Shown here piece by piece: positions 1-22,855 of a DNA stretch of 32,118 nucleotides. A program made the position numbers and the translations under genes. A model generated the notes under the pieces. The model saw only the letters and a list, made by a program, of their open reading frames with translations, did no database searches and was not told the origin of the DNA. The DNA comes from Pleomorphomonas carboxyditropha. Lineage in GTDB: Bacteria > Pseudomonadota > Alphaproteobacteria > Rhizobiales > Pleomorphomonadaceae. The stretch lies in assembly GCF_002770725.1 (NCBI RefSeq), contig NZ_NQVN01000036.1, forward strand, positions 1 to 32,118, read 5' to 3'. Within the stretch, counting starts at the first letter, position 1. The number at the start of each line of letters is the position of its first letter.

Positions 1-68
1 CCTCACCTATGTGGCGATGACCCGGCACCGGGAGGGCGTTCAGCTCCACGTCGCCCGCGACGAGTTCG
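1..68. repeat. Terminal direct repeat, left copy (circle junction)
   Basis: Bases 1-68 are identical to bases 32051-32118. The repeat lies inside traA, and the reading frame is continuous across it, so it is best read as the overlap of a circular contig and not as a biological repeat. The unique circle would be 32,050 bp. Confidence 0.93.
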
Positions 69-2519: not shown

Positions 2520-3500
2520 ATGAGCAACCTACGTAACTCTCAAAAAACTCTAAGTGTTGGCATCGTCACCCGTACGAAAAATCGGGCTGTGTTGCTGCGT
2601 CGGGCACTCGAAAGTGTTCGCAATCAGACCTTTACAAGCTGGCAGCTCATCATTGTCAATGATGGTGGTACGAAAGAGCCTGTCGATCTTCTGGTCCAGC
2701 AAATGTTTAACGGCGATCCTCGCGTACGGATTGTCCATCATGACACATCAAGGGGAATGGAGGCTGCAAGCAACGCTGGTATTGCCCTTCTCAATACCGA
2801 TTACGCAATCATCCATGATGATGACGATAGCTGGGCACCGGAATTTCTGGCCGTTACGACACGTGTGTTGAGTGAGAAACGGAAACAGTATCCCAGTATC
2901 CGCGGAATAGTGAGTCAGCTCAACGCAGTCTACGAGACCGTGACAGCAAATCTGATACAGATCGAAGATGTCCGGCCTTGGTATGCCGGCGAGATGGACC
3001 GGCTGGAAGAGGGATTTCTTAGCATCCAGACAATACTGGTTCGCAATCAGTTCCCGCCTATTGCGTTCCTGTTTGATCTTGGCGTCTGCAAGGAACTGGG
3101 CATGTTTGACGCCAACTTACCTGTTCTGGGAGACTGGGATTTTCATACACGCTTTGTGCTCAAGCACGATATTTGGGTGCATCCCGAGTTCCTTGCGTTC
3201 TATCACCATCGCGTTACTGCCGATGGCGACATGGGTAACAGTGTCCATACGGGCAATCACCTTCATGCTCTTTATCGCCAGATGCTGCGCAACAAATGGA
3301 TTCGCGATGGGGTGAACGACCCGACGACAAGTGGGCGAATGGGACTTATGCTGGCTATGGAGATCCAGGACTCCCTAGCCAAGACATTCAACAAAAGGGA
3401 CACTAGGCGCAAATACAAATCCCCAATTCGACAGGCTCTGTCCGACGGCGTAAAGCGGATAAAGAAATACTTCAAAGGCTCAGGGCATGTCCGACATTGA
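2520..3500 (+). CDS. Family 2 glycosyltransferase
   Basis: This 326-residue GT-A fold glycosyltransferase should transfer a sugar from a nucleotide-sugar donor in the cytoplasm. The N-terminal nucleotide-binding strand is VGIVTRTKNRAVLLRRAL (about 13-30), and IIVNDGG follows at 44-50. The metal-binding DXD-type motif is IIHDDDD at 97-103. The conserved PVLGDWDFHTRF follows, and the last 50 residues are basic. The protein closely resembles the C-terminal half of the protein at 12114-14177, sharing RGMEAASN, the HDDDD motif, FPPI[AS]F and PVLGDWDF. Its stop overlaps the start of the next gene by 14 bases, so the two are probably translationally coupled. The ribosome site (GGAAATT) is weak. Donor and acceptor are unknown. 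Confidence 0.88.
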   Translation: MSNLRNSQKTLSVGIVTRTKNRAVLLRRALESVRNQTFTSWQLIIVNDGGTKEPVDLLVQQMFNGDPRVRIVHHDTSRGMEAASNAGIALLNTDYAIIHDDDDSWAPEFLAVTTRVLSEKRKQYPSIRGIVSQLNAVYETVTANLIQIEDVRPWYAGEMDRLEEGFLSIQTILVRNQFPPIAFLFDLGVCKELGMFDANLPVLGDWDFHTRFVLKHDIWVHPEFLAFYHHRVTADGDMGNSVHTGNHLHALYRQMLRNKWIRDGVNDPTTSGRMGLMLAMEIQDSLAKTFNKRDTRRKYKSPIRQALSDGVKRIKKYFKGSGHVRH

Positions 3501-5418
3501 TTCGGTCGACTTGGTTACATTCGACATATTCGATACCCTTCTTCACCGGAAGGTCTTGGCTCCTGTAGACGTTTTTGAACTGGTGAGACTTAAGGCCTTC
3601 GAAGAAAGCCTATCTCTTCTGGTCCATGACCAATTGTCAAAATTTGTTTATGACCGGATCGAGGCGGAAAGAAAAAGCAGGCAGCGACGGCGGGAACTCT
3701 ATGGCGGTGAGGGAGAAGTCACTCTTGATGAAATTTATCAGGAGTATGGGCGGCTAACCAGCCTGAATGATACGATTGGTAAATTTCTGAAATCCACTGA
3801 GCTGCATATCGAGAAAAATATTCTCGTGGCGAGTCCCAAGGGATTGGAAATCTATAACAAATGTCGCCGGAGCGGAAAGAAAATCGCTTTTATTTCCGAC
3901 ATGTATCTATCACCGGATTGGCTCTCCCACACACTGGAGGATAAAGGTTTCGAAGGTGCGGCCTCGTTGCGAATCTTCGTGTCGAACCAGTATCGCGTAA
4001 GCAAGCACTCCGGTCAGCTTTATGAACAGGTGCGACAAACCCTGGGGATCTCGCCCGCTCGTTGGCTACATGTCGGCGACAATCGGACAGCGGACATTGA
4101 GAGTGCGAGCAAGCTCGGGATCAAGACGCAACATGCCGACTGGGCGAAGGTGGATAACCGTTTCGTTCCGAGGGGCGGTGTGGGACCAGTCCATCTCGTA
4201 TCAAGTCTGACTGCGTTTCTAGATACGCCGCAGGCGTCTCAGTACATTCCTGAGGATGCTTTAGAGTCGATCGGATATCGGGTGTTCGGCCCCTTGCTGT
4301 TTGGTTTCATCGCTTGGCTGACCAAGGCTTGTAAGGACAACAAGTTCGAGCGCCTTATTTTCGTGGCGCGGGATGGATGGCTGCTACGGTCCTTGTTCGA
4401 CAGATGCAAGAACGCTACAGGGCTAACCGGAGTCCACTCGACCTATTTCCAGATGTCTCGTAAGGTCGGTTACCAAGTTGGTATCCGCGAGTGGGATATT
4501 GCGCTAAATCGGTATTTGATCTCTGGGAGGACGTCGCGAAGCGCTAAGAATATACTTAAAAATGCAAATCTTGATGCTGAAAAAATGCTCCATCAGCTGG
4601 CGAGATTTGGCCTGGAGGATATCCATCGCCCAAGAGACAATCGCGACCATGCTGCGTTAACGCAAGCCTTGAGTACAATGTTTCAGGATGCGCTCAACGC
4701 AGGCGTCACCAATCGTGCTAAATATCAAACTTACTTCGATATCTTGCCCGAAGGAAACGGGCCGGTAGGCTTGGTAGACATTGGGTGGGCCGGCAATATT
4801 CAGAAAGCATTCGTTCACGCGATGCGAGATCCATTGGTGCGCGATCGAATCTATGGCTTTTATCTTGGAACGCTAGAATCGAGTAAGGCAGTCACCGCCA
4901 AGGGACTGAAGTTGCAGGGCTGGCTCTGCAATGGTGGCGAGCCAGAGCAATGGGAGCGGTTGCTGACCAATGGCGGTGTCGAGTTGCTGGAATTTGTGCT
5001 GACCGCTAATCACGGATCGATTTTGGGTTTACACCGAGACAGAAATGGGTGTGTAGCTCCGATTATCGAGGAACTGAGTGAATCGGAAGCGCCTTATCGA
5101 GCAAAGGCAATGCGAGCGCAAGCGGGAGTCAGAAAGTTCTTCGATGATTATGAGTTTCTGCTGTCCCTCTTTGAGCCGGGAACATTGATGACATCGGCTT
5201 GGTTCCAGCCCTTCGAGCGCTTGGTCAGCAAACCGACTGATCTCGAACTGAAAGAACTGGCGAGTCTGACGCACTCTGATGCGACTGGTGCCAACAATCT
5301 GCGACTCCCGTTGGCTAGTCGGCAGCCTTTAGGCGTACGCATCTTGAAAGGGCGGTTGCGAAGAGCACGCAAGAAAGCCTTTTGGAAGGCTGCCTTCGAC
5401 AAGCTCAACAAGTGGTAA
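3487..5418 (+). CDS. HAD-family protein with uncharacterised C-terminal domain (COG5610-like)
   Basis: This 643-residue protein has a HAD domain at about 5-220 followed by a second, uncharacterised domain. The HAD motifs are visible: motif I FDIFDTLL (nucleophile Asp13), motif II FISDMYL (Ser137), motif III Lys173, and motif IV HVGDN with a second Asp at 203. Motif I has Phe at the nucleophile+2 position, where phosphatases carry the general-acid Asp. The C-terminal domain has FVARDGWLL (about 292-300), MSRK (323-326) and VDIGWAGNIQ (430-439). All three recur in the proteins at 5465-7600 and, less well conserved, at 12114-14177. The start lies inside the upstream GT2 gene, indicating coupling. 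The family resembles COG5610 HAD proteins often found with polysaccharide genes. The substrate is unknown. Confidence 0.83.
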   Translation: MSDIDSVDLVTFDIFDTLLHRKVLAPVDVFELVRLKAFEESLSLLVHDQLSKFVYDRIEAERKSRQRRRELYGGEGEVTLDEIYQEYGRLTSLNDTIGKFLKSTELHIEKNILVASPKGLEIYNKCRRSGKKIAFISDMYLSPDWLSHTLEDKGFEGAASLRIFVSNQYRVSKHSGQLYEQVRQTLGISPARWLHVGDNRTADIESASKLGIKTQHADWAKVDNRFVPRGGVGPVHLVSSLTAFLDTPQASQYIPEDALESIGYRVFGPLLFGFIAWLTKACKDNKFERLIFVARDGWLLRSLFDRCKNATGLTGVHSTYFQMSRKVGYQVGIREWDIALNRYLISGRTSRSAKNILKNANLDAEKMLHQLARFGLEDIHRPRDNRDHAALTQALSTMFQDALNAGVTNRAKYQTYFDILPEGNGPVGLVDIGWAGNIQKAFVHAMRDPLVRDRIYGFYLGTLESSKAVTAKGLKLQGWLCNGGEPEQWERLLTNGGVELLEFVLTANHGSILGLHRDRNGCVAPIIEELSESEAPYRAKAMRAQAGVRKFFDDYEFLLSLFEPGTLMTSAWFQPFERLVSKPTDLELKELASLTHSDATGANNLRLPLASRQPLGVRILKGRLRRARKKAFWKAAFDKLNKW

Positions 5419-5464
5419 CACCTGTGATAGACCGATCTGAGCCGGGATCAGAGGGGGAGTGACC

Positions 5465-7600
5465 TCAACTGGTCAGGCGTCCCCACCAAAGAAGAAACGA
5501 AGACCGCGAAGCCGCGAAAAAACGGTCACGGTCTTGCCTATACTGTCCGTACTGTCGCGAGGCTCTTCCAAGAACCACTTTAGCAAGTCTGCGTTCGACC
5601 GCCAGACCAACCTTGCGCATGGAGTATAACAGCCAGCTACGGTGCAAGAAGAAGAGCTTACCCTTCTGCCAACGACAGAAAGCAACCGTTCCTTCCTTCC
5701 AAAGAGCCCTATAAAGCGCCCCTGGATCGTCAAGCAAGTCTCGCGGCGGCACGATAAAGAGTGGTTTCTCGCCGCCGTAAATATTAGTGAAAGCAATCCC
5801 TTCGAATAGGACCGCATCCTCTCCTTCCGGATAACGGATGAAATCTTGCAGTAAACGAGCGGCAAGGTCCGACTTCGGGTCGAGATAGGGCAACAGAGGG
5901 CTTGCAGCTGAGGCCATATCGGCTGCCAGAATCCGGCACCCCTCATGAACTTTACGAATAAACATGATTCTTGCGTGGTCAAACGGTGAGTGTGCCTCTC
6001 GATCAACTTCGAAACCACCATCCTCCCGTCGCCCGCAAAAATGCAGGATCGATGCCTCCTCGGTGCAAAAAAGAGTTTCCAGTAGACGGGTATTTCGCAT
6101 GATGGGATGAGGGTGCCGGCGCCGGCGAGCCAAGTGGCCAACATAGCCGCGCATCACAAGCCCCCTCTTGATACGCGGCAGCGCCGCGTCAAGAAGGAAA
6201 AAGTAAAGCCCTGTCAATTTGGTGCCCAGCACCTTAGCATAACCTTCCTGAAGCGTCCCAGCATAGCCGATCTCGACAAAGACAGGAGCGCTGGCCACCG
6301 ACATACCCACATAGTCGCAATAATCGCGGAGATCTTGCAGCCGTGACAGCATCATTTCCCGGAAATAAGGGAAAATATCGACGACATAAGACCGGAACCG
6401 CTCGCAATCGGCCTCAGTTTCCAACCGTGCATCGACGTCGAAGTCGCACCGCTTGGCCCGTGCATTCAGTTCGTGCAGATCGACGGACATCGTACGCCAG
6501 AAGAGGGAAGCCGGCGTTTCCTGGCTAGGGTCACCCAAGAGGTCCAGAAGATCACTCAACTCCGTTGTCGTGCAGGAACGGATGAAGCGGCGTGAGCCAT
6601 AGACGTACTCGGTACGAATTTCTTGCGGGAATAGAAGTTCATAACATTCCTGCACGATCCGGTTATCGCGGGCAGCAAAAAAGGCGGCGTCGTGTCCCCC
6701 CTCCTTGATCTGCCGATGTATCCAGAGACAGAAATCAGCAACTACAGGCCCAAGGCCGGCATAGCCGAGCTCTATCGCATCCCCACCGAAATGGCTATTC
6801 TCTCTGGTCGAAGAAAATGGATTGTCAAACAATCGTTCGGCCAAAAGATGAATGAGCAAAGACCTTTGCAAGGTTCGCGGCTCATCGCGCTGAAAGAGAC
6901 AGGTGAAGCGAGGATTTTTCTTCATCGCGTCAATGCCGCATCGCAACCGTTCTGTCAGGATACCCAAAGACCGTGGGATATTTTCGTCCCCTTGCGGATT
7001 ATTGCCCACATGGAGAAGAAGCCCTGGCGCCAGTTGCTGCTCGGCTAGAATATGCCGAAAAAGTGACCCGCTACGCTTGCTGAGACCGAGGCTGTTGGAA
7101 AGATAAAGCGTTGTCGTTCCGTCATAACCGCACTTGTCTAGCAGTCGCCGGATGAAGGGCTCTGGCAGATAGATGTCCGAGGTGAAGATCATCCGCTTGC
7201 CGAGTTTGCAGCACACCTCATAGAGAGCCCTGCCGATCGGGCGAGCCTTGGCAAGCTCAAATTCTAGCGTTGCTTCAAGTTCTTGTAATCGTCTTGCCTC
7301 CGCATCGCTCAGTTCATTGATCTCGGCAAGCATTTGATAGATATCGTCAAAAGTGCATTCTTCCCGTTCTGGCGGCAGACGCTTGTGAGCCAGATTCTCA
7401 GCAGTTCGCCGAGCCACCTGGAAGTTAAACGGAAATGCCCTTCCCTCAGCGTTCATATGGAGTTGCATCAGAAGGTGTAGATCGGTTGGCTCGGCGAGTG
7501 GTCGCCCAATCAAGGTTTCGAATAAATCGAACGAAACGATTTCTGCATCGGTGATCTTGCGAAGCACGCGTTCCGGGATATCCAACAGTGCTGAGGTCAT
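5465..7600 (-). CDS. HAD-family protein with uncharacterised C-terminal domain (second copy)
   Basis: This 711-residue relative of the protein at 3487-5418 lies on the opposite strand and converges with it across a 46-base gap. HAD motifs: I SFDLFETLIGR (Asp25, Phe at +2, Glu at +3), II FTSDIYLP (Ser141), III Lys175, IV HVGNNPQGD (Asn200 where the relative has Asp, then Asp205). The C-terminal domain carries FFAARDN, YGSRRF and FVEIGYAGTLQ. It is a divergent paralogue, not a recent duplicate. The Asp-to-Asn change in motif IV may weaken metal binding. The start codon at 7600 sits directly against the IS481 remnant ending at 7601, so the original promoter and possibly the true N-terminus may have been displaced. 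No family partner glycosyltransferase is fused to it or adjacent. Confidence 0.8.
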   Translation of the reverse strand: MTSALLDIPERVLRKITDAEIVSFDLFETLIGRPLAEPTDLHLLMQLHMNAEGRAFPFNFQVARRTAENLAHKRLPPEREECTFDDIYQMLAEINELSDAEARRLQELEATLEFELAKARPIGRALYEVCCKLGKRMIFTSDIYLPEPFIRRLLDKCGYDGTTTLYLSNSLGLSKRSGSLFRHILAEQQLAPGLLLHVGNNPQGDENIPRSLGILTERLRCGIDAMKKNPRFTCLFQRDEPRTLQRSLLIHLLAERLFDNPFSSTRENSHFGGDAIELGYAGLGPVVADFCLWIHRQIKEGGHDAAFFAARDNRIVQECYELLFPQEIRTEYVYGSRRFIRSCTTTELSDLLDLLGDPSQETPASLFWRTMSVDLHELNARAKRCDFDVDARLETEADCERFRSYVVDIFPYFREMMLSRLQDLRDYCDYVGMSVASAPVFVEIGYAGTLQEGYAKVLGTKLTGLYFFLLDAALPRIKRGLVMRGYVGHLARRRRHPHPIMRNTRLLETLFCTEEASILHFCGRREDGGFEVDREAHSPFDHARIMFIRKVHEGCRILAADMASAASPLLPYLDPKSDLAARLLQDFIRYPEGEDAVLFEGIAFTNIYGGEKPLFIVPPRDLLDDPGALYRALWKEGTVAFCRWQKGKLFFLHRSWLLYSMRKVGLAVERRLAKVVLGRASRQYGQYRQDRDRFFAASRSSFLLWWGRLTS

Positions 7601-8456
7601 CTAGGTGTGAAACCTTGAGAGGTTGTCAGTGGTTGGGTTGGGGCGATTGATTGGCGCTTTGGCGTCTAGGCTGCCGTGTGCTCTGTGCCAATTGCACATG
7701 TGGATCCAATCTGGCAAATGGGCTTTTCGGTGATCTGAGGTCGGATAGGCACGTGCGTATTCCCATTCACGCAAAGCAATCCGATGAACCGCTCGGCCTT
7801 TCCTTTTGTCTTGGATGTGTAGGGCTTTTGGTTCGGATATACTTCAGACAGAGTTCCCGGCAAGCCTTTTCAAAGGCTTTGGATTTGCAGCATGATCCGT
7901 TGTCAGTCATCAGGCGGGTTACGGTGATGCCGAGGCCATTGTAATAAGCGATCGCGGCTTTCAGGAGGGCCACACGGCATTGACGGTTTTTTCATCAGGG
8001 AAGATGTTGGAGCTGGGGTGATCGATGCGTGAAGCGTCGTTGAGATAGCAACATGGACATATTTCCAGCCGGCGCCGCGCGAGTTGCTCTGTCTGGTGCG
8101 ATCACCGGTGATCCGGGGACCAACCCGGCCGAAACAACCCAAGCGTTTGATGTCGAAATGAATCAAGCCACCGGGCTCGGAATATTGATAGCGGATGATC
8201 GGGTCTGCTGGAGCGAGGTCCTTCAACTGTGACAGTCCGGCCCTTGGTTTCATGGGCAATATGCTTGGCGGCCAGTCGTTCGCGTCGCAAAGCCGGAATC
8301 CGAGCGTGCACTCCCGCTGCGATTTGACTGGGGCTGGTCTTCGGGCGAGGCGAACGGTCGGCCATTCCGACTGATTCTTCGACACGAAAACGCTCGATCC
8401 AACGTAACAATCTTCGCGCAGACGCTGTAGTGGCCGGCATTCTTATGAATGTTCAT
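7601..8456 (-). pseudogene. IS481-family transposase, multiply frameshifted
   Basis: Fragments in three frames line up in order with an IS481-type transposase. They are the start MNIHKNA (8456), a winged-helix region with RWIERFRVEE, GLIHFDIKRLG then RVGPRITGDR, YVHVAIS, ITVTRLMTDNGSC, KTKGKAERFI, and a C-terminus containing NWHRAHGSL with a stop at 7601-7603. Catalytic DDE regions are present, but the frame changes several times, so no functional enzyme can be made. It sits exactly between the genes at 5465-7600 and 8453-9322, and both gene ends touch it. Confidence 0.85.
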
Positions 8457-9322
8457 TCGTCGCGATACTGGAAAACTGACGTGTGGTAACTCCAGTCTCT
8501 AGAATCCGCTCCGAATGGACGACCTCCTGAAAGCTCACGTCTAGGCTGCGCTGTCTGTAAGGAGATTGAAAGCGCCCTAGAAAAATCCATTCTGGGAATT
8601 GACGTCAGATTACCGCCAACTCCGCAGTTAAATATGCCCCTTCCTACCGCCTCGAACTGCGCCCTTATGACGCGAAATTCGTCATTGGTTCGTGGAAGGG
8701 AGGCGCGCTTAGCCTGTGTCTCGGGAAGAGACTCGTGCTGCCGATCAGTATCTGACATTTCATAAGCATAACTATAGTTGTAGTTTATATCTAGATCACA
8801 CCCGATAATAAAAACATTCTGAAATCCAAGAAAATAACAAATCTGAACTGCAAACGAAATGACACTAGAGTCATTGCCTATGCCGAGATTCATCTGCGGC
8901 TGAAAACCTCTTTTCAGAATACCCCCATTCCGGTACGGCACCCAATGTATGTCGTAAGGTAAATCCTCTTCTTGAGGAGTGACTGAATAAAACCTCTTAC
9001 GGTAAAAAGCAGTCCTGATTTTTAAGTCACTCCAATCGGCGCTGTAGTCTCGAAAACAGTCTATATCGGAGACAACGTGAAATGGGATTATCCAATCCTT
9101 AAAAAGTCGCACGCCATTATTGACAACCATATAAGATACGTTCTGAATCGGAAGTTGCTCATAAGGCAAAAGTTTTAGAGATGGTGCGGACCCCACAAGA
9201 AAAACGCTCTGACCAGAGTTTATATTATTTAGAGAACGGAGCGCTCGTTGAGCCCGAGTATCGGCTTGAATTATCGCCCTTTCTACCACTCTTCTTGCAA
9301 ATTTAAACATTGTGATACTCAT
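8453..9322 (-). CDS. DUF115/GT42-like glycan protein
   Basis: This 289-residue protein has the pattern of the DUF115 (MptE-like) and GT42 sialyltransferase group: an N-terminal VFLVGSAPSL (about 40-49), VVNNGVRLF (66-74), GIGNDSSVISFA (147-158), then a LG...VFIIGCDLD segment (165-178). In those families the GxGPSL-type loop binds a nucleotide or nucleotide sugar. A role in adding a nonulosonic acid or another sugar is plausible but inferred. The gene is visibly richer in A/T than its neighbours, a sign of separate acquisition. The stop codon lies at the edge of the IS481 remnant, overlapping its start codon, so the C-terminus may have been trimmed. An alternative start is the Met at codon 5. 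The family link rests on motif pattern only. Confidence 0.7.
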   Translation of the reverse strand: MSITMFKFARRVVERAIIQADTRAQRALRSLNNINSGQSVFLVGSAPSLKLLPYEQLPIQNVSYMVVNNGVRLFKDWIIPFHVVSDIDCFRDYSADWSDLKIRTAFYRKRFYSVTPQEEDLPYDIHWVPYRNGGILKRGFQPQMNLGIGNDSSVISFAVQICYFLGFQNVFIIGCDLDINYNYSYAYEMSDTDRQHESLPETQAKRASLPRTNDEFRVIRAQFEAVGRGIFNCGVGGNLTSIPRMDFSRALSISLQTAQPRRELSGGRPFGADSRDWSYHTSVFQYRDE

Positions 9323-9838
9323 ATTATCTTGGAGGCTATTGCAGAATGAGCACGCTTAGCGAGCGTGGATCGCTCGGATGACGATCCAACGGTGCCTTTT
9401 CAGGCAGCATTTCGGCTCACTTCCCCACCCTTTCCGGCCTTCTCGGCCAGACTCCCGGTGCAGTTTCGTGATCCGCTATCCAGATCGATCTTCCACACCG
9501 CAATCTTCCCCGCTGGAGAAGCGACCGCGGCCACTGTCCGATCCACTCGCTTCCTCGTCCGAACTGACAATCCTCCCGCCTATCGACCGCTTCCGTTTCC
9601 TTCAACGTCCTGTCGATCTCATCTTCGATAGAGCTAGCAAGACGATTAGCCTCAAGGACGCCCTAGCCTTGATCTTGATCCCGTCGAGTTCACCACGACC
9701 CCAACCACACAGGATAGTATTATCCTCCAATAACACTACCATAAAGTGAAATCCTGCAACACTCTCCATGAAAATAAATTTAACATGTGAGGGTATTATC
9801 CAGATCTTCGTTGTTCCCTTCCACGTCGTGGCTGATCC
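9323..9838. other. Intergenic stretch without a convincing gene
   Basis: No intact gene is seen here. The minus strand holds short open fragments that change frame, for example one opening MVVLLEDNTILCGWGR near 9747, which could be decayed coding sequence. I could not assign them to a family. The gap separates the AT-rich gene at 8453-9322 from the GC-rich genes that start at 9839. Confidence 0.5.
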
Positions 9839-11698
9839 TCAGCGCTGGCCGGGCACCGAGGCGGAATCCGCCAATTGTTCGAGCGCAATGTTAGTGATCA
9901 CGCAGATGAGTCGGTTCGGATTGTCGAGCTGAGGTTTGATGTCGAAGATGTAGGCGTCGGGTAGGTGTCGCCAGAACAGCGCAAGCCACGTTGCGGGCGG
10001 GTAGACCGCAACGTGGTTATGGTCATCGTCGTAGCATGCAATTACATGGAACTGCAGTGGTCCGGCCTGGGTAAGCTTTCTGATAGCGGAGTCGATCGAG
10101 GCGCCCGGAATGTGCTCGAGTACGCTCGCTGAGCAGACGAGGTCTGCCGGCGGCACCGGGTCCTCGATAAGGTTGGTGCGGACGAACCGGACGTTTATCA
10201 TTTCGAGGGGAAGAGTGTCGGTTTGCACCCAGTCCGCCCCCACGACTTCGTCGAAGACCTCGGCGGCAAGTCGTAGGAACTGGCCGTTGCCACATCCGAC
10301 TTCAGTGACCCTGCCCGCCTTCTGCGTGGCAAGCGTCGGCAGGTAGCTCACGAGCCAGTTGTTGCTCTTGTACGCGTCGAGTGTGCTGTAGAAATCCGCG
10401 TAGCAAGACTGGTCGGGCGCTGACCGCACGTCGGGCGGAAGCGATGGTTGCGGCTGTGGTGGCGGGTACCCGAGCATTCGACGCACGCCGGCGAGCATCC
10501 CTGAAGATGCCAGAGCCTGCAATCGCCAGAGGTCGAGGAGTACCGAGGCTGCGGTGTCGTGGGCGGCAATCGCGATCCGCTGCTGGACTGTAGTTCTGGC
10601 GAGGACGGTCTGGCGTCGGGACGACTCAGCATTGGCAAACGCCCGCTTGAGAAGTTCCCGCATCGAAGGGATAACGGGTGGCTCCCGGCCTGTTTCGAGC
10701 GCTACGATCTGCGAGATACGGTTGCGGATTTTCGTCAGGTCGTTCGCCTCGATGCAGTATGCGACGAGGTACCAACCGAGAAAGCGTGTGACGTCGGCAG
10801 CCGAGGGGCCAGCGTAGGGGCAGAAGACAGCCTCGAGGCCATTAATGTCCTCAATGCGCTGCGTCGCGGTCTCGAAATCGCTGACGGCATAGCTGTAGAC
10901 TGGTTTTCCATGTAGCAACGCCTCGAAGAGGACGCCGGAGTTGGCGCCGACCACGGCGCGCGCGCCGGAAATGAGGCGGTGAACCGAAGCGGTCGAAACC
11001 CGAATCGCTTCTTGCTCTGCAAGCCGATCCAGAAGCGCTCCCGTTTCGTCGTGGCGACACAGAGGATGGCGTTTGACAACCAAAGGAATGCCATGCCTAG
11101 CTGCGTGTACGGCAAGAACCTCAAGCGCGTCCGTCTGGAGTATACGCGAGCATCGCGAGACCGTATCCTCGGTTGTCTGCAGGGGCAGAAACAGATAACC
11201 GGGGGCGAGATCCTGCCCCCGTGCGTCGTCGGGCTGATTGTATTTCGAGACGTTATCGGCGACCAGCTTCTCCTTCAGCTGGCGGACGGTTTCCTCGGCG
11301 AGGACCATGTCAAAGCCGGCTATCGCGTCCGTGAAGGTCGCGGGGTAGCGCGCGAGTTCGGAGAAGCCCGAGTACCCGAGCCGGTCCAGCGTGAAGTATT
11401 CTAGGACGTAGCTTTCCTTTATCCGCCAGACCCGCGGCTCATCGCCAAAGCTGTGATACGAGAAGCAGACCTGCCCTGCCTCGGGAAGACGTGGAGATGG
11501 GTCGTCCCAGTAGCTCGCGCTGCTCAGCTCGGTGCGGTATCCGAGCTCGATCGACGCTGTGCAGAAATTTGCGAAGAGGCGGCGCACGCTACTCCCGAGA
11601 TTGGGGTGCCGCAACCAGTCGGTCGGCACCTCGATCAGGATGTCGCTGTCGGATGCGGACCCGGACGACGGGCGTTGTTCGAATGTTTCCACTGTCAT
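9839..11698 (-). CDS. Capsule-type glycosyltransferase fused to a SAM methyltransferase
   Basis: This 619-residue protein has two enzymatic parts. Residues about 20-340 resemble the KpsC/KpsS-like capsule synthesis family (Kdo-transferase type): LFLPLQ near 169-174, VVKRHP at 207-212 and a sugar-nucleotide motif GANSGVLFEALLHGKPVYSY at 251-270. A helical, Pro-rich linker (about 345-430) follows. Residues about 435-600 form a class I SAM-dependent methyltransferase with motif I VTEVGCGNGQFL (464-475), an acidic residue in VVGADW (485-490), and SASVLEHIPG. A plausible job is to extend a surface glycan and methylate it, perhaps as a cap, but this is inferred. The start at 11698 has only a weak ribosome site. 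The gene is GC-rich, like the genes at 12114-15462 and unlike 8453-9322. Confidence 0.75.
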   Translation of the reverse strand: MTVETFEQRPSSGSASDSDILIEVPTDWLRHPNLGSSVRRLFANFCTASIELGYRTELSSASYWDDPSPRLPEAGQVCFSYHSFGDEPRVWRIKESYVLEYFTLDRLGYSGFSELARYPATFTDAIAGFDMVLAEETVRQLKEKLVADNVSKYNQPDDARGQDLAPGYLFLPLQTTEDTVSRCSRILQTDALEVLAVHAARHGIPLVVKRHPLCRHDETGALLDRLAEQEAIRVSTASVHRLISGARAVVGANSGVLFEALLHGKPVYSYAVSDFETATQRIEDINGLEAVFCPYAGPSAADVTRFLGWYLVAYCIEANDLTKIRNRISQIVALETGREPPVIPSMRELLKRAFANAESSRRQTVLARTTVQQRIAIAAHDTAASVLLDLWRLQALASSGMLAGVRRMLGYPPPQPQPSLPPDVRSAPDQSCYADFYSTLDAYKSNNWLVSYLPTLATQKAGRVTEVGCGNGQFLRLAAEVFDEVVGADWVQTDTLPLEMINVRFVRTNLIEDPVPPADLVCSASVLEHIPGASIDSAIRKLTQAGPLQFHVIACYDDDHNHVAVYPPATWLALFWRHLPDAYIFDIKPQLDNPNRLICVITNIALEQLADSASVPGQR

Positions 11699-11817
11699 CG
11701 TCTCGTTCTTCTAACGTTAGCAGGAGCCCCTTGCTATGCCGGGGTGGCTGTAGGAGTTTGACGTTGGCGGTGACTTTCGTGTTTCTATCACGCAGACACG
11801 AAAGAACTCAGCCCAAT

Positions 11818-11877
11818 TGACGTGCTCCCCTTGATTTAGGCCAGTTCAAACTGGCCTAATTTGATGGGAGCACGTCA
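11818..11877. repeat. Near-perfect 60-bp palindrome
   Basis: Arms at 11819-11846 and 11849-11876 are inverted copies around a two-base centre with only a few mismatches, and one further base pairs on each side. The outer ends read TGACGTGCTCC, and part of that motif recurs just downstream (GAGCACGTCA at 11881-11890). It may be two insertion-sequence ends brought together head to head. It could also act as a terminator-like hairpin between the genes on either side. Confidence 0.6.
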
Positions 11878-11894
11878 GAGGAGCACGTCACTTT

Positions 11895-12011
11895 TGGGCG
11901 AGGGGCTACTTCGTCTCGACCGTCAGGAGAGATGAAGTAGCGATCCGTGATTACATCCGCAACCAGGAAAAAGAGGACGCGCGCCTGGAGCAGCTTGCAC
12001 TATGGCGATAA
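11895..12011 (+). pseudogene. IS200/IS605-family Y1 transposase, C-terminal remnant
   Basis: A 39-codon segment encodes WARGYFVSTVRRDE, then IRDYIRNQEKED and ends with LEQLALWR and TAA. This matches the C-terminal tail of IS200-type TnpA proteins. The catalytic HUH and Tyr parts are missing. The following 100 bases (to about 12113) hold short hairpins, such as GCCGCTTTGCGCGGC, typical of the right end of such elements. The remnant ends against the stop codon of the gene at 12114-14177. Confidence 0.75.
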
Positions 12012-12113
12012 ACCGCCTTCAGACGGTGCCAATCTGGTGGGGACGCGTAGGCGCCCCCACTAGCCGCTTTGCGCGGCTATAACTATAAAGCCTCTGGCTT
12101 TGCCGGGGGATAC

Positions 12114-14177
12114 TTACAGCTTGTGCAGTATCCGGTTCCTCATGGCTTCGATCTGGGCGCCGGCCCCGACTAGGCTTCCGAAGTTGGTCCTGCTGCTATC
12201 CCCCCGCACAAATGCGTTTCGCAAAACCGAGGAATACTCAATATGCTTGTCGACGCCATCAATGACCGAGTTGCCGAAGAACCCCGTCTCGCCAACGTCG
12301 CGAAAATGGTAGAAGGCAAGTTCTTCGGGCAGGACGCCGATATCGGCGATCTGCAGGAAGCGCAAGTTGAAGTCCCAGTCGCCAAGGACGGGGAAGCGTT
12401 CGTCGAACCCCCCGATAGCGTCGTAGACCGAACGGCGAAACACGAAGCTGATCGGCGGGAACATGTTTGAGATCGACATCTCGCTGATCGCCACGTTGAC
12501 GAGGCCAGGGTTGTAGGAGCGCTGCCCTTCGATCCGGATGCCCTCGGGCGTCACACGCTCGGAGACGTAGGTGGACCGAGTCGTGACCCCCCCGTACTTT
12601 GCCCCCCGCGCGCTTTCGAGAAAGCCCACGGAGCGCTCGAGGAACTCCGACGTCCAGGTATCGTCGTCGTCATGGATTACGACGTAATCGCTGGGTGCCG
12701 CCCGGATGCCTATGTTCGATGCCGATTCCATGCCACGGTTCTCGACGGCGTCGACAAGCATAATCCTCGAATGATCGACGTTGGCCTGCGCCACGGTTTC
12801 ACGGATGGTGGCAATGTCCCCACCGTCGCAGACGATCACATGGCGGTAGGTTCGCCACGTCTGGCGGTGGACCGATAGCAGGGCTCGCCGAAGGAACATC
12901 GGGCGGTCCATCGTGCGGGTCACTACGGTCACGAGCGGCCTGGGCTGCGGCACGGCGGGGTGGCGCTCCGGACGAGATCCAAAGGGGAGTCCGAAACGTT
13001 TTCGCTGGATGCTTGCCGCCATCCCCCGCTCGTATTCGACTGCGATCTGTCCCGCCTTCCACAGCGATCGGGCAATCCGGTCGGAGGCGCTTGCGGCGTG
13101 TCCTTCGTCGAGGATCACCGGAACCGTAAACCGGCGACCGAAATCCGCGCTGCGTTCCAGCGACCTGAAACAGTAGGCCCAAGCTCGGCTCGGGGTGAGT
13201 AGGATGTCGGCCAGTTCCCGAGTAGCTCTGGCCGCCGCAGCCTCGACCTCGAGTGGGTCGGTGGGAGCGCTACGCAGGTGCTCGAGGACTCCCATGAACA
13301 TCGGATCTTCGTCCCGCTCGAGCGAGGCTAGGTTCTCCCGGGCGCCGGGGATGCTCACTTCGCCCGAGGACGTACCCTCGTAGCATTCGATGCTCGGAGC
13401 CACGGGTTCGAACAGACTCTCGATGACGTGCCGATGCTCGATGATTGCCGTTTCCGGTCGGGTCGCGTCGACATCATCCGCCTGGAAGATGAGGGGAATT
13501 GCCCGGTTCCAGTGCTTGCGCGACGCGAGGCCCGACGCAGAAAGCCCGAAATACGCCCCCCACCATTCGACCTCAGGCCAGCCCGCCATGAGCATCCGCT
13601 GGGTAGTGGCGGCCCAGCCAGTGTCGACGATGAGGGCGGCCTCTCGGCCGCCGAGTAGGCGTGTCGTCTCGGCTCGAAAGAGGCGAGACTGTTCGATCAG
13701 ATGATGTCGCAGCGCAGCCGTCCGCGGATCCTTCGCGGCAAGGAGTTGGTCGATAGAGTCCTTGTTTCTGTCCACGTAGAACTGATCGGCTGACTGCGCT
13801 GCCGTGACATCCTTTTTCCCGATCAGGCATTCCTGCGCGAGCGCCCAGGGCGTGTGCTCATACTCGGAGCGGAACACCGAGACTGTCTCGTCCGGCGACG
13901 TGTCGTACACTCCCTTGGCAACCATCAGCCGCGAAACCCAAAAGTGATCCCAGCCAGCGGGCAGGGAGAAGCCCATGCGCTCGGCATAGACGCCGAGCGC
14001 ATGACGGATCCTCACACCGGCGCGGGCGGCAAACAGGATCTTCGCGTTCCGGCTCTTGTCGAAGTAGAGGCAGGTCGACAGGAGGCGGCTCAGGTAGGCC
14101 GCGACGAGCGGTCCCAGCACGTCACGCCCGAGGACGTCGAGTGAAGGATTGGTCGGACTGCGCACATCACTCTTCAC
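12114..14177 (-). CDS. Uncharacterised HAD-partner domain fused to a family 2 glycosyltransferase
   Basis: I prefer GTG 14177 as start: AAGGAG lies seven bases upstream, and the upstream gene stops at 14182. An in-frame ATG at 14207 lacks such a site. The product has 687 residues. The N-terminal half corresponds to the C-terminal domain of the HAD proteins at 3487-5418 and 5465-7600: LFAARAG (about 49-55), VSRL and IVDTGWAATTQ (about 183-193). The Asp of the usual ARD motif is Ala here. From about residue 415 to the end is a GT-A family 2 glycosyltransferase with VTVVTRTMDRP, VCDGGD, RGMESASN, VIHDDDD and PVLGDWDFNLRF, closely similar to the protein at 2520-3500. The HAD half of the system is the separate upstream gene. 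The substrate is unknown. Confidence 0.83.
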   Translation of the reverse strand: MKSDVRSPTNPSLDVLGRDVLGPLVAAYLSRLLSTCLYFDKSRNAKILFAARAGVRIRHALGVYAERMGFSLPAGWDHFWVSRLMVAKGVYDTSPDETVSVFRSEYEHTPWALAQECLIGKKDVTAAQSADQFYVDRNKDSIDQLLAAKDPRTAALRHHLIEQSRLFRAETTRLLGGREAALIVDTGWAATTQRMLMAGWPEVEWWGAYFGLSASGLASRKHWNRAIPLIFQADDVDATRPETAIIEHRHVIESLFEPVAPSIECYEGTSSGEVSIPGARENLASLERDEDPMFMGVLEHLRSAPTDPLEVEAAAARATRELADILLTPSRAWAYCFRSLERSADFGRRFTVPVILDEGHAASASDRIARSLWKAGQIAVEYERGMAASIQRKRFGLPFGSRPERHPAVPQPRPLVTVVTRTMDRPMFLRRALLSVHRQTWRTYRHVIVCDGGDIATIRETVAQANVDHSRIMLVDAVENRGMESASNIGIRAAPSDYVVIHDDDDTWTSEFLERSVGFLESARGAKYGGVTTRSTYVSERVTPEGIRIEGQRSYNPGLVNVAISEMSISNMFPPISFVFRRSVYDAIGGFDERFPVLGDWDFNLRFLQIADIGVLPEELAFYHFRDVGETGFFGNSVIDGVDKHIEYSSVLRNAFVRGDSSRTNFGSLVGAGAQIEAMRNRILHKL

Positions 14178-14181
14178 TGAA

Positions 14182-15462
14182 TCACTCCTTCGCCCAGTCC
14201 GTAACATCGACTCCCCGGTCGCGGAAGTGCTGCACGAGTGCGGCGAGCGACTGCGAACGGGCTCTGGCTTCGCCGGAAGACACCGGGAAGTGCAGGGCGT
14301 CCCATCTTGAGTTCCTAGGCATCTCGACGTCTCCCATGAACGAGTCGCCTACGTGAAGGAATCCTGATGGCGCTACGCCCATTGCCTCGCCCACCAGATC
14401 GAAGATGCGACCCGATCGCTTACTGTAGAGTTCGTCCGCGCTGCTAAAGAGCCGGTCGGTCGCCTCGGGGATCGCCGGGCTGATGAGTCTGGCGATAGCG
14501 GCGATCATGCTGCCCGGGAGGTACATGTCGCTGACTAGCACGACCTTCCCACCCGCCGACCTGAACCATTCGGCGACGCGCAGCAGCGGACGGTTTGCGA
14601 CGAGCTTGCCGGCTTCGTAGGCAATTTCCGCATCAAGCAGAGGCTGAACAAGCCTGTCGTCTCCGACCAGACGGTGCGATAGGAGAGTCATCACGTCAAC
14701 GATCGTTCCCTCCTTGCATCCGTCCTTACCGGGCCGCGCCCGGTAACTGAGCCGCATCGCGTCGGCGCGAAGGAGACACAGCCCCTCCGCCGTCGTGTTC
14801 GCGGGCAGGGGACCTACACGGCCTAGGATGAAGTCCGATACCTCGAGAAAACGAGCCGCCTCGGCTTCGGGTCCCCTGAGCAGCAGTGTGTCGAACACAT
14901 CGAGTGACAGGCACTCCTTGCCGATCATGGCGTTGCGCATCACTGCTTCGAAGGTCTCGTGGTTCGCGTCCAGCCAGGCCTGCCTACTGTCGCAGGAATA
15001 GAAGTCGTCCGGGAAGGGACGCATGTCATGAACGACGCTGAATCCCAGTTCATCCACGGTTGATGGAAGCGGAACCACCTTGTCGCCGGTGATCTCTTTG
15101 GTGGCTGACGGTGGAAGGAATGCCTGCGCAAAGCTGACGCCGGACAGAAATGAAGCCGTTTGTCCCGGCGCAGGATCGCGCTTCGGATCCAGCAGCGCGG
15201 CTGTCACGCAGGACAACTCTTTTCGCAGGCGCACGAGATCAAATTTGAGCGCCGAGCGGCGCAGTTTCAGCCAAGTCTTTGAGTCCCGGCGGAACAGATT
15301 GCTTGCGGCTCTCGCGGCGGCTCTCGCAATCCAGGGTTTTGAACGGCCCGATCCCAGAAGCGGATTCTTCTCCAAATGCGCAAGCAACGCAAATACTTGG
15401 TTGATCCACTCGGAATCTTTCTTCTTCTGGGTTATCAAATCCGCACCCCATTGAACCGACAT
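14182..15462 (-). CDS. HAD-family protein lacking the C-terminal partner domain
   Basis: This 426-residue protein has an unassigned helical N-terminal region (about 1-180) and a HAD domain (about 183-395). Motifs: I SLDVFDTLLLR (Asp188, Phe at +2), II LVSDMYLPGS (Ser311), III Lys348, IV HVGDSFMGD (Asp373, Asp378). It ends where its relatives continue into the uncharacterised domain. That domain is encoded by the next gene, which starts five bases after the TGA with its ribosome site inside this gene's last codons. The two are therefore very likely cotranslated and may form a complex equivalent to the single-chain relatives. The start at 15462 lies just downstream of the IS5 remnant, so the promoter may come from that element. 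Confidence 0.8.
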   Translation of the reverse strand: MSVQWGADLITQKKKDSEWINQVFALLAHLEKNPLLGSGRSKPWIARAAARAASNLFRRDSKTWLKLRRSALKFDLVRLRKELSCVTAALLDPKRDPAPGQTASFLSGVSFAQAFLPPSATKEITGDKVVPLPSTVDELGFSVVHDMRPFPDDFYSCDSRQAWLDANHETFEAVMRNAMIGKECLSLDVFDTLLLRGPEAEAARFLEVSDFILGRVGPLPANTTAEGLCLLRADAMRLSYRARPGKDGCKEGTIVDVMTLLSHRLVGDDRLVQPLLDAEIAYEAGKLVANRPLLRVAEWFRSAGGKVVLVSDMYLPGSMIAAIARLISPAIPEATDRLFSSADELYSKRSGRIFDLVGEAMGVAPSGFLHVGDSFMGDVEMPRNSRWDALHFPVSSGEARARSQSLAALVQHFRDRGVDVTDWAKE

Positions 15463-16362: not shown

Positions 16363-18171
<1,809 letters not shown>

Positions 18172-18350: not shown

Positions 18351-18688
18351 CCGAGGACGCGGTTTCCATAGTCCCTGAGTTCGCCCTTCGGGCCGACATA
18401 TCTGTATAGAGTGACGCGCTCGATCCCGAGTTCCTTGCACAGATCGGAAACGGAAGTGTCGCGCTGTGCCATGGCGGCCTGGGCGAGACGCACCTGTGCT
18501 TTGGTCAGGGCGAATTTTCGGCCCCCTTTGCGACCACGGGCTCTGGCGGCGGCGAGCCCAGCCATGGTGCGCTCGCGGATTAGGTCACGCTCGAACTCGG
18601 CCAGGGTGGCGAAAATGCCGAACACCATGCGTCCGGATGTGGTCGTGGTGTCGATCTGAGCGCCCTTTCCGGTCAGCACCCGCAGACC
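18341..18688 (-). pseudogene. tnpR: Serine resolvase, truncated (3' part)
   Basis: This is a near copy of the C-terminal 115 or so residues of the resolvase at 19597-20211. It covers [14 protein letters not shown], the [10 protein letters not shown] helix and the helix-turn-helix [15 protein letters not shown] through VTLYRYVG. The catalytic N-terminus is missing because another Tn3-type end (18689-18726) interrupts the gene. It cannot be functional. Confidence 0.88.
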
Positions 18689-18726
18689 GGGGTCGGAACA
18701 GGAGCAGTTCAAAATCGTACGCTAAG
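18689..18726. repeat. Tn3-family terminal inverted repeat, tnpA side
   Basis: Exactly 38 bases, GGGGTCGGAACAGG... to ...CGTACGCTAAG, with the GGGG start and TAAG inner end usual for Tn3-family ends. It lies 19 bases from the end of the tnpA fragment, the normal arrangement, and it interrupts the resolvase copy on its left. Confidence 0.8.
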
Positions 18727-18745
18727 GTCGAACGAGCCCTGAACG

Positions 18746-19568
18746 TTACGCGGCTCGGAGGATTTTGCCGTGAAGCCGCAAGGGCCTGAAGCCCTCGGAC
18801 ATCTGCTGCTCTGCGTCCCAGGAATAGATGCCGGTGAGATTGATATGCTCCCAACTGAGCGGCGAGACGTGTTTGAGCAGTTCGTCAGGAATATGCCGAC
18901 CCTGATGGCGCAGGTGGGCCGTGGCCCGGCTAAGATAGACGATATTCCAATGCACGATGGCGCTGACCACCAGGTTGAGGCCAGAAGCTCGGAATGCCTG
19001 ACTGTCAAAGGATCGATCACGGATTTCGCCGCGCTCGTGGAAAAAGACGGCACGTTTGAGCTTGTGAGCGGCCTCGCCCTTGTTGAGCCCGGCCTGACAG
19101 CGCCGCCGCAATGCAGGGCTGGAATACCATTCGATCATGAACAGCGTGCGCTCGAAGCGGCCGAGTTCGCGCAATGCTTTGGCCAGGTCGCTGGATTTCG
19201 ACGAGGCGGACAATCTCTTGAGGATGGCCGACGGCGCGACGGTTCGCGTGGTGATCGATGCGGCAAGATGCAGGAGCTCGTCCCAATGATCCATGATGAG
19301 GGCGGCATTGATCGGCATACCGACATGATCTGCCAGCGCCGGATAGGCATCGGCCTTTTCGAAGGTATGGAATTTTCGGTCCTTGATATTGCGGAGCCTC
19401 GGCGCGAAGCGCTTACCAATCAGGCAGAATAGCGCAAAAACATGATCGCTAGCGCCTCCGGTATCCGTGAACAACTCCTCGATCTCCAGAATCGTGTCGT
19501 GGTCGAACAGGCCGTCGAGCACATAGACGGCCTCGCTCTCGGTCGGGCTGATCGGCAGGATGCTAATA
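18746..19568 (-). pseudogene. tnpA: Tn3-family transposase TnpA, C-terminal fragment
   Basis: About 273 codons of a Tn3-type DDE transposase (normally near 1,000 residues) run from [19 protein letters not shown] to the stop at 18746. Conserved landmarks are [36 protein letters not shown] and [10 protein letters not shown]. The 5' end is cut by the Tn3-type end at 19569. A GTG at 19522 opens a 258-residue frame, but this is inside the domain and is not a real start. The fragment is inactive and records an insertion into an older transposon. Confidence 0.9.
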
Positions 19569-19606
19569 GGGGTCGTTTGCGGGAGAGGGCGAAATCCTAC
19601 GCTAAG
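19569..19606. repeat. Tn3-family terminal inverted repeat, intact 38 bp
   Basis: GGGGTCGTTTGCGGG... to ...CTACGCTAAG is 38 bases with canonical Tn3-family ends. The resolvase stop codon (19597-19599) lies inside it. The element has inserted into tnpA. The five bases TAATA (19564-19568) would be its target duplication if a matching copy survives elsewhere, and I did not find the partner end. Confidence 0.82.
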
Positions 19607-20211
19607 CCGAGGACGCGCCTTCCATAGTCCCTGAGTTCACCTTTCGGACCGACATAGCGATAGAGGGTGACGCGTTCGATCCCCAGTTCCTTGCACAGAT
19701 CGGAAACGGAAGTGTCACGCTGGGCCATGGCGGCCTGAGCGAGACGGACCTGTGCTTTGGTCAGGGCGAATTTTCGTCCGCCCTTTCGTCCACGCGCTCT
19801 GGCAGCGGCAAGACCGGCCATGGTCCGTTCGCGGATTAGGTCACGCTCGAACTCGGCCAGGGTGGCGAAGATACCGAACACCATGCGGCCGGATGCGGTG
19901 GTGGTGTCAATCTGAGCGCCCTTTCCGGTCAGCACGCGCAGACCGACCTTGCGGTCTGATAGGTCCTTCACGGTGTTGACCAGGTGAGCAAGCGACCGCC
20001 CCAGGCGGTCGAGCTTCCAGACCACCAGCACATCGCCGTCGCGCAAGGATTTCAGGCAGGTGGCCAGTCCGGGCCGATCGTCGCGGCCGCCGGAAGCGCG
20101 ATCCTCATAAATGTTGTCCTGATCGACGCCGGCGGCGCGCAAGTCGTCGTGCTGCAGGTCGAGGGACTGTGAGCCATCGGCTTTTGAGACTCGGGCGTAT
20201 CCGATCAGCAT
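19597..20211 (-). CDS. tnpR: Serine resolvase/invertase (Tn3-family TnpR)
   Basis: This 204-residue serine recombinase resolves transposon cointegrates at a res site. It starts at ATG 20211 with [15 protein letters not shown], where the Ser in RVS is the catalytic nucleophile. [14 protein letters not shown] and [11 protein letters not shown] follow, then the long helix [10 protein letters not shown] and a C-terminal helix-turn-helix ending [11 protein letters not shown]. Length and all catalytic Arg-containing motifs look complete. It belongs to the youngest of the nested Tn3-type elements, whose transposase is not seen in the window. It could still act on its own res site and so help resolve plasmid multimers. 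Confidence 0.93.
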
Positions 20212-20340
20212 GTTTCTTAAACGTTGGTTTGAGTTAGCACAGCGGGCGCGATCGTTTTGTTCGCTGGAAATGTATCTCAACCAGCGTCATAAACAAAGCA
20301 TCTTGAATGCCGTGTGAATTTGAAAAAGAAACATGAATGC
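20212..20340. promoter_or_regulatory. Probable res site region upstream of tnpR
   Basis: In Tn3-family elements the resolvase binds three subsites just upstream of its own gene. This AT-richer stretch contains short repeated pieces such as TTAAACGTTGGTTTGAG and CATAAACAAAG. The subsite boundaries cannot be set by eye. Confidence 0.35.
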
Positions 20341-20382
20341 CCGTTGCGCCATACGAACATTTCGACAGGGGGTCGATGGGCC

Positions 20383-20903
20383 TCAACTGCCCACAGTGAG
20401 CCGTTTCAGCGTGTCGACGCTGACCTCCATGACGAGGCATGGCTTTTCGATCTTGTCGAAGATCTCCGTCAGCTCCTCGTCAATCTCGGCGAAGCCATGC
20501 TTTCGATAGAAGGAAATCGCGGCTGGGCTGGAACCGAGAACTCTGATCTCGATTCTTTTCGCCGCTTGGATGCCGAGCGCGCCGGCGAGTAGAAGACGGG
20601 AGCCGGCTCCTCGCCGTTGCCAATCGGGTCGAACGTACATTCCCAGAGATAGGCTGTTTCGCCGCGTTCGGCGATGATGGCGCTGCCGATGATTTCTTTC
20701 CGTAAGGCGATGCAATAGCCGCGATCATCAGCCCCCGGCAGCATCCCCGTCGCTTCATGCTGATCCAGTTCGGCCAGCATATTTGCGAGCGTACCCGCGC
20801 CCAGGACTATGCCATAGGTTGCTATCCAGGTTTCTCGCCACAAGGCCAGTAACCCGTCCACGTCCTTCGGTGCGATCAATCTAGTGTCAAATGTGGCCGT
20901 CAT
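20383..20903 (-). pseudogene. GNAT-family acetyltransferase with one frameshift
   Basis: The minus strand from ATG 20903 reads MTATFDTRLIAPKDVDGLLA and continues through an acetyltransferase N-half to AERGETAYLWE. The frame is then lost near 20641. The second half continues one frame away as MYVRPDWQRRGAGSRLLLAG, containing the acetyl-CoA loop (Q/R-x-x-G-x-G/A), then ISFYRKHGF. Restoring one A in the GAATG at the junction joins the halves into a normal protein of about 173 residues. It is a simple GNAT enzyme of unknown substrate, and resistance or detoxification are possible roles. The frameshift could also be a sequencing error. It lies next to the resolvase as probable transposon cargo. 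Confidence 0.82.
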
Positions 20904-21153
20904 CGTCTTCTGATGGTTCTGCAACTGCTGGGCTATTCCTCCCGTGGTTTGGCTCCGAGCGGGATCGATCTTGTCCGAAACCAGGCGAGGGGTGCCCCCA
21001 TCCTCATACCCTCATCCTGCCCAGCTGTGTGCTTATAAAGGGCGAGAATCTGCGGATTTCCTTCACGAGGTTGGCTGCGAACTGAAGATTTTCACCTCTT
21101 CGATTGCAGTTTTAGGGTTGCAGAATCGCAAGAAAGCGCCGTTACTCGTAACT

Positions 21154-21363: not shown

Positions 21364-21367
21364 CGGC

Positions 21368-21401
21368 GAAACGCCCAACCGTTGGCGCGGTTGAGCGTTT
21401 C
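21368..21401. terminator. Stem-loop after the ribbon-helix-helix gene
   Basis: Arms 21368-21381 and 21388-21401 pair over 14 bases with one mismatch, around a six-base loop. No T-run follows on either strand. A transcription end or RNA-stabilising hairpin is possible. Confidence 0.45.
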
Positions 21402-22847: not shown

Positions 22848-22855
22848 TTAACAAC

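What the first reader, a model, noticed from the sequence alone, without database searches (positions are those of the whole stretch)
2520..15462. Rearranged HAD / unknown domain / GT2 modules: a candidate undescribed glycan system
The same three modules occur in two arrangements. At 2520-5418, GT2 and HAD-CTD are overlapping genes. At 12114-15462, HAD is one gene and CTD is fused to GT2 in the next. A stand-alone HAD-CTD lies at 5465-7600. Domains that are fused in one arrangement and separate in another usually act on one pathway. With a capsule-type GT-methyltransferase fusion, a DUF115/GT42-like protein and an ABC exporter nearby, the plasmid may carry a surface-glycan modification system that could alter phage or host recognition.
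Basis: partly seen in the sequence, partly recalled or inferred. Interest (0 to 1): 0.78.

Follow-up and report, generated by a model that had tools for sequence, protein, structure and literature searches.

The report
Plasmid ribose-adding enzymes, rewired active site
A bacterial plasmid carries three sets of relatives of the enzymes that add ribose to bacterial sugar chains, and one set belongs to a clade that lacks an acidic residue known to matter in a studied relative, so it may add ribose in a different way or add another sugar.

Summary

New: the gPRT-GT2 form sits beside a separate PRP gene in 12 of 12 relatives. In 27 of 27 rows of this form Ala replaces the loop-1 acid whose change to Ala lowers Bcs3 activity. 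Its wider clade shows other fixed changes, such as an acid at 267 in 33 of 35 rows against 0 of 98: a rewired sister clade rather than decay. Donor, acceptor and product are untested.

The parts
2520..3500 (+). P0001, GT2 glycosyltransferase, 326 aa
   Evidence: Pfam Glycos_transf_2 E 1e-20; 41% identical to the GT2 of P0006 over 251 residues
3487..5418 (+). P0002, PRP-gPRT in one chain (PRP about 3508-4137, gPRT about 4168-5415), loop 1 R-D-G
   Evidence: Bcs3 E 3.9e-23 and 7SHG E 2.3e-19; motifs
5465..7600 (-). P0003, PRP-gPRT in one chain, loop 1 R-D-N; PRP motif IV Asp replaced by Asn (7001-7003)
   Evidence: Bcs3 E 3.7e-22 over residues 3-341; motif IV count
8453..9322 (-). P0004, MptE/DUF115-like protein, role unknown
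   Evidence: PF01973 E 6e-4, below the cut-off
9839..11698 (-). P0005, capsule-synthesis-like domain fused to a methyltransferase
   Evidence: PF05159 23 bits (cut-off 20) and PF13489
12114..14207 (-). P0006, gPRT-GT2 fusion
12987..14141 (-). gPRT domain of P0006 (residues 23-407)
12153..12953 (-). GT2 domain of P0006 (residues 419-685)
   Evidence: HMM range; Pfam E 3.1e-14
14016..14024 (-). Loop 1 triplet R62-A63-G64 of P0006; A63 stands where Bcs3 has D680
   Evidence: alignments
13407..13409 (-). Glu267 codon of P0006, acid specific to the R-A-G/R-G-G clade
   Evidence: 33 of 35 rows Glu (2 Gln) against 0 of 98 acidic
14182..15462 (-). P0007, stand-alone PRP phosphatase (HAD part about 14269-14922) with an N-terminal extension; true start uncertain
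   Evidence: 7SHG PRP domain E 9.6e-8; catalytic residues kept
16363..18171 (+). P0008, MsbA-like ABC exporter; link to the glycan genes not tested
   Evidence: TIGR02203 E 9.2e-149, below the equivalog cut-off

Best explanation
The region is a plasmid-borne set of glycan genes whose HAD and 'CTD' modules are homologous to the phosphatase (PRP) and phosphoribosyltransferase (gPRT) of PRPP-dependent ribofuranosyltransferases, and together with the GT2 modules they are predicted to build a glycan that contains ribofuranose. [quoted passage not shown] P0001+P0002 would be one such unit and P0007+P0006 a second; P0003 is a third ribosyltransferase relative whose phosphatase probably needs help in trans. 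Shown here: homology, fold, gene arrangement, residues kept and lost. Inferred: donor, acceptor, product, order of steps, surface location, export. For the P0006 clade, which lacks the loop-1 acid, the working guess is that it still uses PRPP through a rearranged site.
For: Sequence matches of P0002, P0003 and P0007 to Bcs3 and 7SHG; profile match of the P0006 domain to the gPRT of 7SHG, E 9.8e-12, next E 0.5; model of P0006 1-410 matches 7SHG and Bcs3 far above all else. PRP gene directly upstream in 12 of 12 gPRT-GT2 loci. The three modules occur in every arrangement, one protein included. Phosphate-pocket and base residues (R62, S92, R93, D195, E263) are kept in the P0006 clade. The PRP of P0007 keeps the HAD residues, which makes sense only if the product carries a phosphate (inference). 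Bcs3 parts work in trans, so a split is workable.
Against: No activity has been measured. The P0006 clade lacks the loop-1 acid whose change to Ala lowers Bcs3 activity. 56 of 67 loci with only the GT2 have neither PRP nor gPRT. The genes lie on both strands and differ in GC (45-54% for P0001-P0004, 61-63% for P0005-P0008), so they may not be one pathway. P0003 has an odd PRP.
Confidence: 0.7

Rival explanations
1. P0002 is an ordinary PRPP ribosyltransferase, but the P0006/P0007 clade transfers a different phosphorylated sugar (another pentose phosphate, or one changed at C2 or C3) from its pyrophosphate, because the acid that holds the ribose is replaced.
For: 27 of 27 gPRT-GT2 rows have Ala at the loop-1 site and 9 related rows Gly; the change comes with other clade-wide changes, R66, E267, R352, D355; the clade is one side of a strongly supported branch; the phosphate-pocket residues and the PRP are kept.
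Against: The remaining site looks like a PRPP site, and an acid at 267 may simply replace the lost one. No other donor of this type is known to me in polysaccharide synthesis (recalled).
Confidence: 0.17
2. The island is a mosaic of separately acquired glycan genes, some no longer working, and not one cluster with a single product.
For: Two GC blocks; genes on both strands; Tn3 transposase fragment and resolvase next to it; P0003 with an unusual PRP.
Against: No gene of P0001-P0008 is broken; two complete GT2+PRP+gPRT sets are present; a conjugative Acetobacter plasmid carries an overlapping glycosyltransferase | PRP-gPRT pair too.
Confidence: 0.3
3. The gPRT domain of P0006-type proteins is no longer a transferase but an acceptor-binding or scaffolding domain for the GT2.
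For: Loss of the loop-1 acid in 27 of 27 rows.
Against: R62, D195 and E263 stay fixed in 35 of 35 rows; a PRP gene stands beside the fusion in 12 of 12 loci, which a non-transferase would not need.
Confidence: 0.1

Closest known systems
Dual-domain PRP-gPRT ribofuranosyltransferases (Thermobacillus composti ORF11, PDB 7SHG; K. pneumoniae O4 ORF5 and O7 ORF7)
   Different: In P0006/P0007 the PRP is a separate gene, the gPRT is fused to GT2, and the loop-1 acid is Ala (7SHG has Glu)
Bcs3 of H. influenzae type b (CroT-CrpP-CriT)
   Same: CrpP and CriT are homologous to PRP and gPRT; three activities make one polymerase
   Different: Partner is a ribitol-phosphate transferase, not GT2; single chain; D680 present
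Cj1432 of C. jejuni (GT4-PRP-gPRT)
   Same: A glycosyltransferase, PRP and gPRT work in turn, and the glycosyltransferase acts on the new ribose
   Different: GT4 rather than GT2; single chain; chromosomal capsule locus
E. coli K13-type capsule enzymes (Kdo transferase + ribofuranosyltransferase-phosphatase)
   Same: Glycosyltransferase fused to the two ribofuranose domains
   Different: GT99-like Kdo transferase partner; no PRP | gPRT-GT2 form mentioned in the passages read
Three-component pentofuranose systems (C. youngae O1)
   Same: PRP domain and PRPP as first donor
   Different: There a membrane PRT, a MATE flippase and a GT-C enzyme act; here the gPRT has the 7SHG fold

Membership tests
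PRPP-dependent PRP-gPRT ribofuranosyltransferase, for P0002 | PRP and gPRT domains in one chain | tested here: met
   7SHG over residues 3-522, E 2.3e-19; HMM ranges
PRPP-dependent PRP-gPRT ribofuranosyltransferase, for P0002 | HAD catalytic residues and loop-1 acid | tested here: met
   FDIFDTLL, FISDMYL, HVGDNRTAD; R-D-G
PRPP-dependent PRP-gPRT ribofuranosyltransferase, for P0002 | Transfer of Ribf-5-P from PRPP, then dephosphorylation | not testable with these tools
   needs enzyme assay
PRPP-dependent PRP-gPRT ribofuranosyltransferase, for P0003 | Intact PRP motif IV | tested here: not met
   HVGNN; 156 of 160 rows have Asp, the Asn rows are P0003 (twice), P0130, P0137
PRPP-dependent PRP-gPRT ribofuranosyltransferase, for P0006/P0007 | gPRT fold | tested here: met
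PRPP-dependent PRP-gPRT ribofuranosyltransferase, for P0006/P0007 | Both domains in one chain | tested here: not met
   separate overlapping genes; related R-G-G proteins are fused (L086, L087, L096, L097, L101)
PRPP-dependent PRP-gPRT ribofuranosyltransferase, for P0006/P0007 | Loop-1 acid (Bcs3 D680) | tested here: not met
   A63; Ala in 27 of 27 rows of this form
PRPP-dependent PRP-gPRT ribofuranosyltransferase, for P0006/P0007 | Other matched site residues (R679, S707, R708, E818, proposed base E874) | tested here: met
   R62, S92, R93, D195, E263 in 35 of 35 rows; matching to Bcs3 numbers is by alignment and spacing
Three-component pentofuranose system | Membrane PRT, MATE flippase and GT-C in the locus | tested here: inconclusive
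   not found among the proteins scanned, but not every ORF nor the rest of the genome was searched for them
Known anti-phage defence system | Match to PADLOC models | tested here: inconclusive
   no match for 6 of 8 proteins; weak for P0005, ABC-type for P0008

The most novel reading that the evidence does not exclude
The R-A-G clade is a new class of glycan phosphoglycosyltransferase: it has given up the loop-1 acid that holds ribose, put a new acid (Glu267) by the site, and transfers a pentose phosphate other than ribose, or ribose with a different outcome, working with a separate phosphatase and a fused GT2 to build a glycan not yet known.
Probability: 0.17. Interest if true: 0.75.

Novelty: new variant of a known kind. 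Interest (0 to 1): 0.5.

Why it matters
PRPP-dependent ribose addition has been placed only since 2022 and rests on few characterised enzymes. A clade that lacks one of the two ribose-holding acids, yet keeps the other matched residues and stands beside the phosphatase gene in every locus examined here, makes the role of that acid and the donor range of the fold directly testable with two proteins. The shuffling of GT2, PRP and gPRT from three genes to one protein supports joint action, and the loop-1 triplet (R-D-G, R-G-G or R-A-G) gives a simple rule for annotating genes now named 'HAD family hydrolase' or 'hypothetical protein'. That a small plasmid could change the surface glycans of its host in this way is inference.

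Tried and rejected
A new domain: rejected; the CTD is the gPRT of 7SHG and Bcs3.

Anti-phage system: PADLOC had nothing for 6 of 8 proteins, a weak match for P0005 and ABC-type matches for P0008; PHROGs, scanned for P0001-P0007, gave only glycosyltransferase-type families (P0001) and a methyltransferase (P0005).

Viral carriage: a scan of IMG/VR with two peptide patterns from alignment A2 gave 17 pattern matches, none confirmed as a relative; P0006 against phage records matched in 8 records, through the GT2 part only.

Plain decay of the P0006 site: rejected because the change is fixed in the clade and other clade-specific residues are equally fixed. Limits: rows come from searches seeded with P0006 and P0002. 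One R-G-A protein (L102) falls on the Asp/Glu side of the tree and was left out of both residue classes. In one search one row is a fragment (L026) and one a gap (P0071). The 27 Ala rows include P0022, the same protein as L006, so 26 are distinct. In one search I dropped P0022, P0064, P0066, P0067, P0071 and L026 and kept one in three of P0072-P0124; the tree is the quick method without bootstraps. P0003 and some others have long branches.

Rarity counts are lower bounds: at most 4 candidates per genome were scored. L012 is cut by its contig end inside the GT2. In one search only 80 of 101 confirmed stretches were kept by the tool.

The second structure job was not used. Model coordinates were not at hand, so the place of Glu267 rests on spacing to Bcs3 E874 and S884, not on measurement.

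Full report
What was checked. The two pairs overlap by 14 and 26 nt. The two GT2 modules are 41% identical over 251 residues.

Literature. All papers were seen as passages only. PMC10299916: CriT of Bcs3 moves Ribf-5-P from PRPP, CrpP removes the phosphate, separated parts work in trans; D680 and E818 hold the ribose and their alanine variants are (partially) inactive; the authors found both residues in all homologs they identified. PMC11127046: gPRT and PRP as the domains of the prototypical family; a different membrane pathway for alpha-linked Ribf. PMC11231755: K. pneumoniae O4 and O7. PMC12096443 and PMC11800397: Cj1432 is GT4-PRP-gPRT, the GT4 acting on the new ribose. PMC13171606: Kdo transferase with ribofuranosyltransferase-phosphatase in E. 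coli capsules. Kelly et al. 2022 was seen only as a reference. Six library searches listed no paper that I recognised as describing a separate PRP with a gPRT-GT2 fusion or a loop-1 Ala clade; most subscription papers are not held.

Arrangements elsewhere. A scan of species genomes with P0006 returned 79 loci. In 12 (L006-L017) the match covers gPRT and GT2, and in 12 of 12 a PRP gene lies directly upstream on the same strand, overlapping or at most 129 nt away. Scans of the held loci show: PRP | gPRT-GT2 (window and those 12); GT2 | PRP-gPRT (window, L018, L027, L049) or PRP-gPRT | GT2 (L031, L045); separate genes (L022, L023, L085, and L020 with its GT2 about 5 kb away on the other strand); one protein GT2-PRP-gPRT (L029 1113 aa, L030 1021 aa; L026 as two overlapping frames); PRP-gPRT without this GT2 in the stretch held (L086, L087, L096, L097, L098, L101, L102). 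Against a tight link, 56 of the 67 loci that matched through GT2 only (L018-L084) have neither PRP nor gPRT; of the 14 best of these (L018-L031) 9 have.

The active site. In a 137-row alignment the residue at the place of Bcs3 D680 is Asp in 93, Glu in 5, Ala in 27, Gly in 10, Arg in one fragment and a gap in one. The 27 Ala rows are all the gPRT-GT2 rows (26 distinct). For P0002 and P0003 the match to Bcs3 is direct in the HMMER alignments; for P0006 it runs through 7SHG, which has Glu there. On a tree of 96 rows made without the triplet, the 26 Ala rows and nine Gly rows are one side of a branch (SH-aLRT 100) and the Ala rows are one group (94); the tenth Gly row, L102, is on the other side. 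Comparing these 35 rows with 98 Asp/Glu rows: R62, D195 and E263 are kept in both, S92 and R93 nearly so; position 66 is Arg in 33 of 35 against mostly Leu or Ile; 267 is Glu in 33 and Gln in 2 of 35 against 0 of 98 acidic; 352 is Arg in 35 of 35 against His in 79 of 98; 355 is Asp in 35 of 35 against 11 of 98 acidic; 115 is Glu in 31 of 35 against 0 of 98. By spacing, E263 and S272 fall where Bcs3 has E874 (proposed base) and S884 (pyrophosphate pocket), so Glu267 should lie near the site; this is inference.

The phosphatases. P0002 and P0007 keep the HAD catalytic residues. P0003 has Asn at the motif IV Asp and Glu at the second motif I Asp. At motif IV 156 of 160 rows have Asp; the Asn rows are P0003 (listed twice), P0130 and P0137. 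Its PRP is probably weak and may rely on P0007 or P0002 in trans (inference, with the trans activity of Bcs3 parts as precedent).

The plasmid. The contig ends share a 68-bp direct repeat; with one copy removed a TraA-type frame of 1260 codons runs across the join, so the window is a circular plasmid of 32,050 bp. It has a coupling protein (27330-28907) and a ParA (22926-23585), and its backbone resembles small alphaproteobacterial plasmids such as those of Pseudochrobactrum algeriensis (39% of 18500-32118 covered at 78% identity). GC is 45-54% for P0001-P0004 and 61-63% for P0005-P0008. A conjugative Acetobacter plasmid carries a glycosyltransferase gene overlapping a PRP-gPRT gene, with a sulfotransferase beside it.

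How common. Of 60 related genomes (own included) 4 matched the 15-row profile: own and G040 with the Ala type, G007 with the Gly type, and G048 weakly. Of 385 genomes of the class (own included) 4 matched; the other three are of the Gly type. These are lower bounds.

Verdict. New are the gPRT-GT2 form with its separate PRP and the fixed, coordinated change of the ribose-holding site. P0002 can be filed with the known ribofuranosyltransferases; P0006/P0007 works like them in fold and partners but fails two defining features and is best called a sister clade. Donor, acceptor, product and any effect on phages or hosts are untested.

Noticed in passing
L098 (G000:C2:1-19000), 7822-10308 and 3824-5521: The host's own chromosome has a further PRP-gPRT protein (828 aa, R-D-G type) about 2.3 kb from a fliD gene, which hints at glycosylation of the flagellum.
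   Followed up: partly
window 1-68 and 32051-32118: A 68-bp direct repeat at the two contig ends; with one copy removed the TraA frame runs across the join, so the contig is a closed circle.
   Followed up: yes
window 18746-20280: A Tn3 transposase fragment and a resolvase lie directly beside the glycan island and may have brought part of it in.
   Followed up: no
L105 4899-7911 (Acetobacter ascendens pAP1447-1): A conjugative plasmid with a glycosyltransferase gene overlapping a PRP-gPRT gene by 11 nt, and a sulfotransferase gene next to it.
   Followed up: partly
L104 2669-6130 (Pseudomonas sp. TMW 2.1634 plasmid): A 1153-aa protein with PRP-gPRT part near kdsA, kdsB and ABC export genes on a mobilisable plasmid, a likely Kdo-ribose glycan locus.
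   Followed up: no
L102 8450-12433: A 1327-aa protein whose loop 1 reads R-G-A but which groups with the Asp/Glu rows, so the acid may have been lost more than once.
   Followed up: no
L007 12542-14046 and L006 14118-15926: FkbM methyltransferase and sulfotransferase domains near two gPRT-GT2 loci (one fused protein in L006), which suggests methylated and sulfated glycans.
   Followed up: no
window 8453-9322: P0004 is a weak match to the MptE/DUF115 family, below Pfam's cut-off; no match was found that would support the GT42 label.
   Followed up: no
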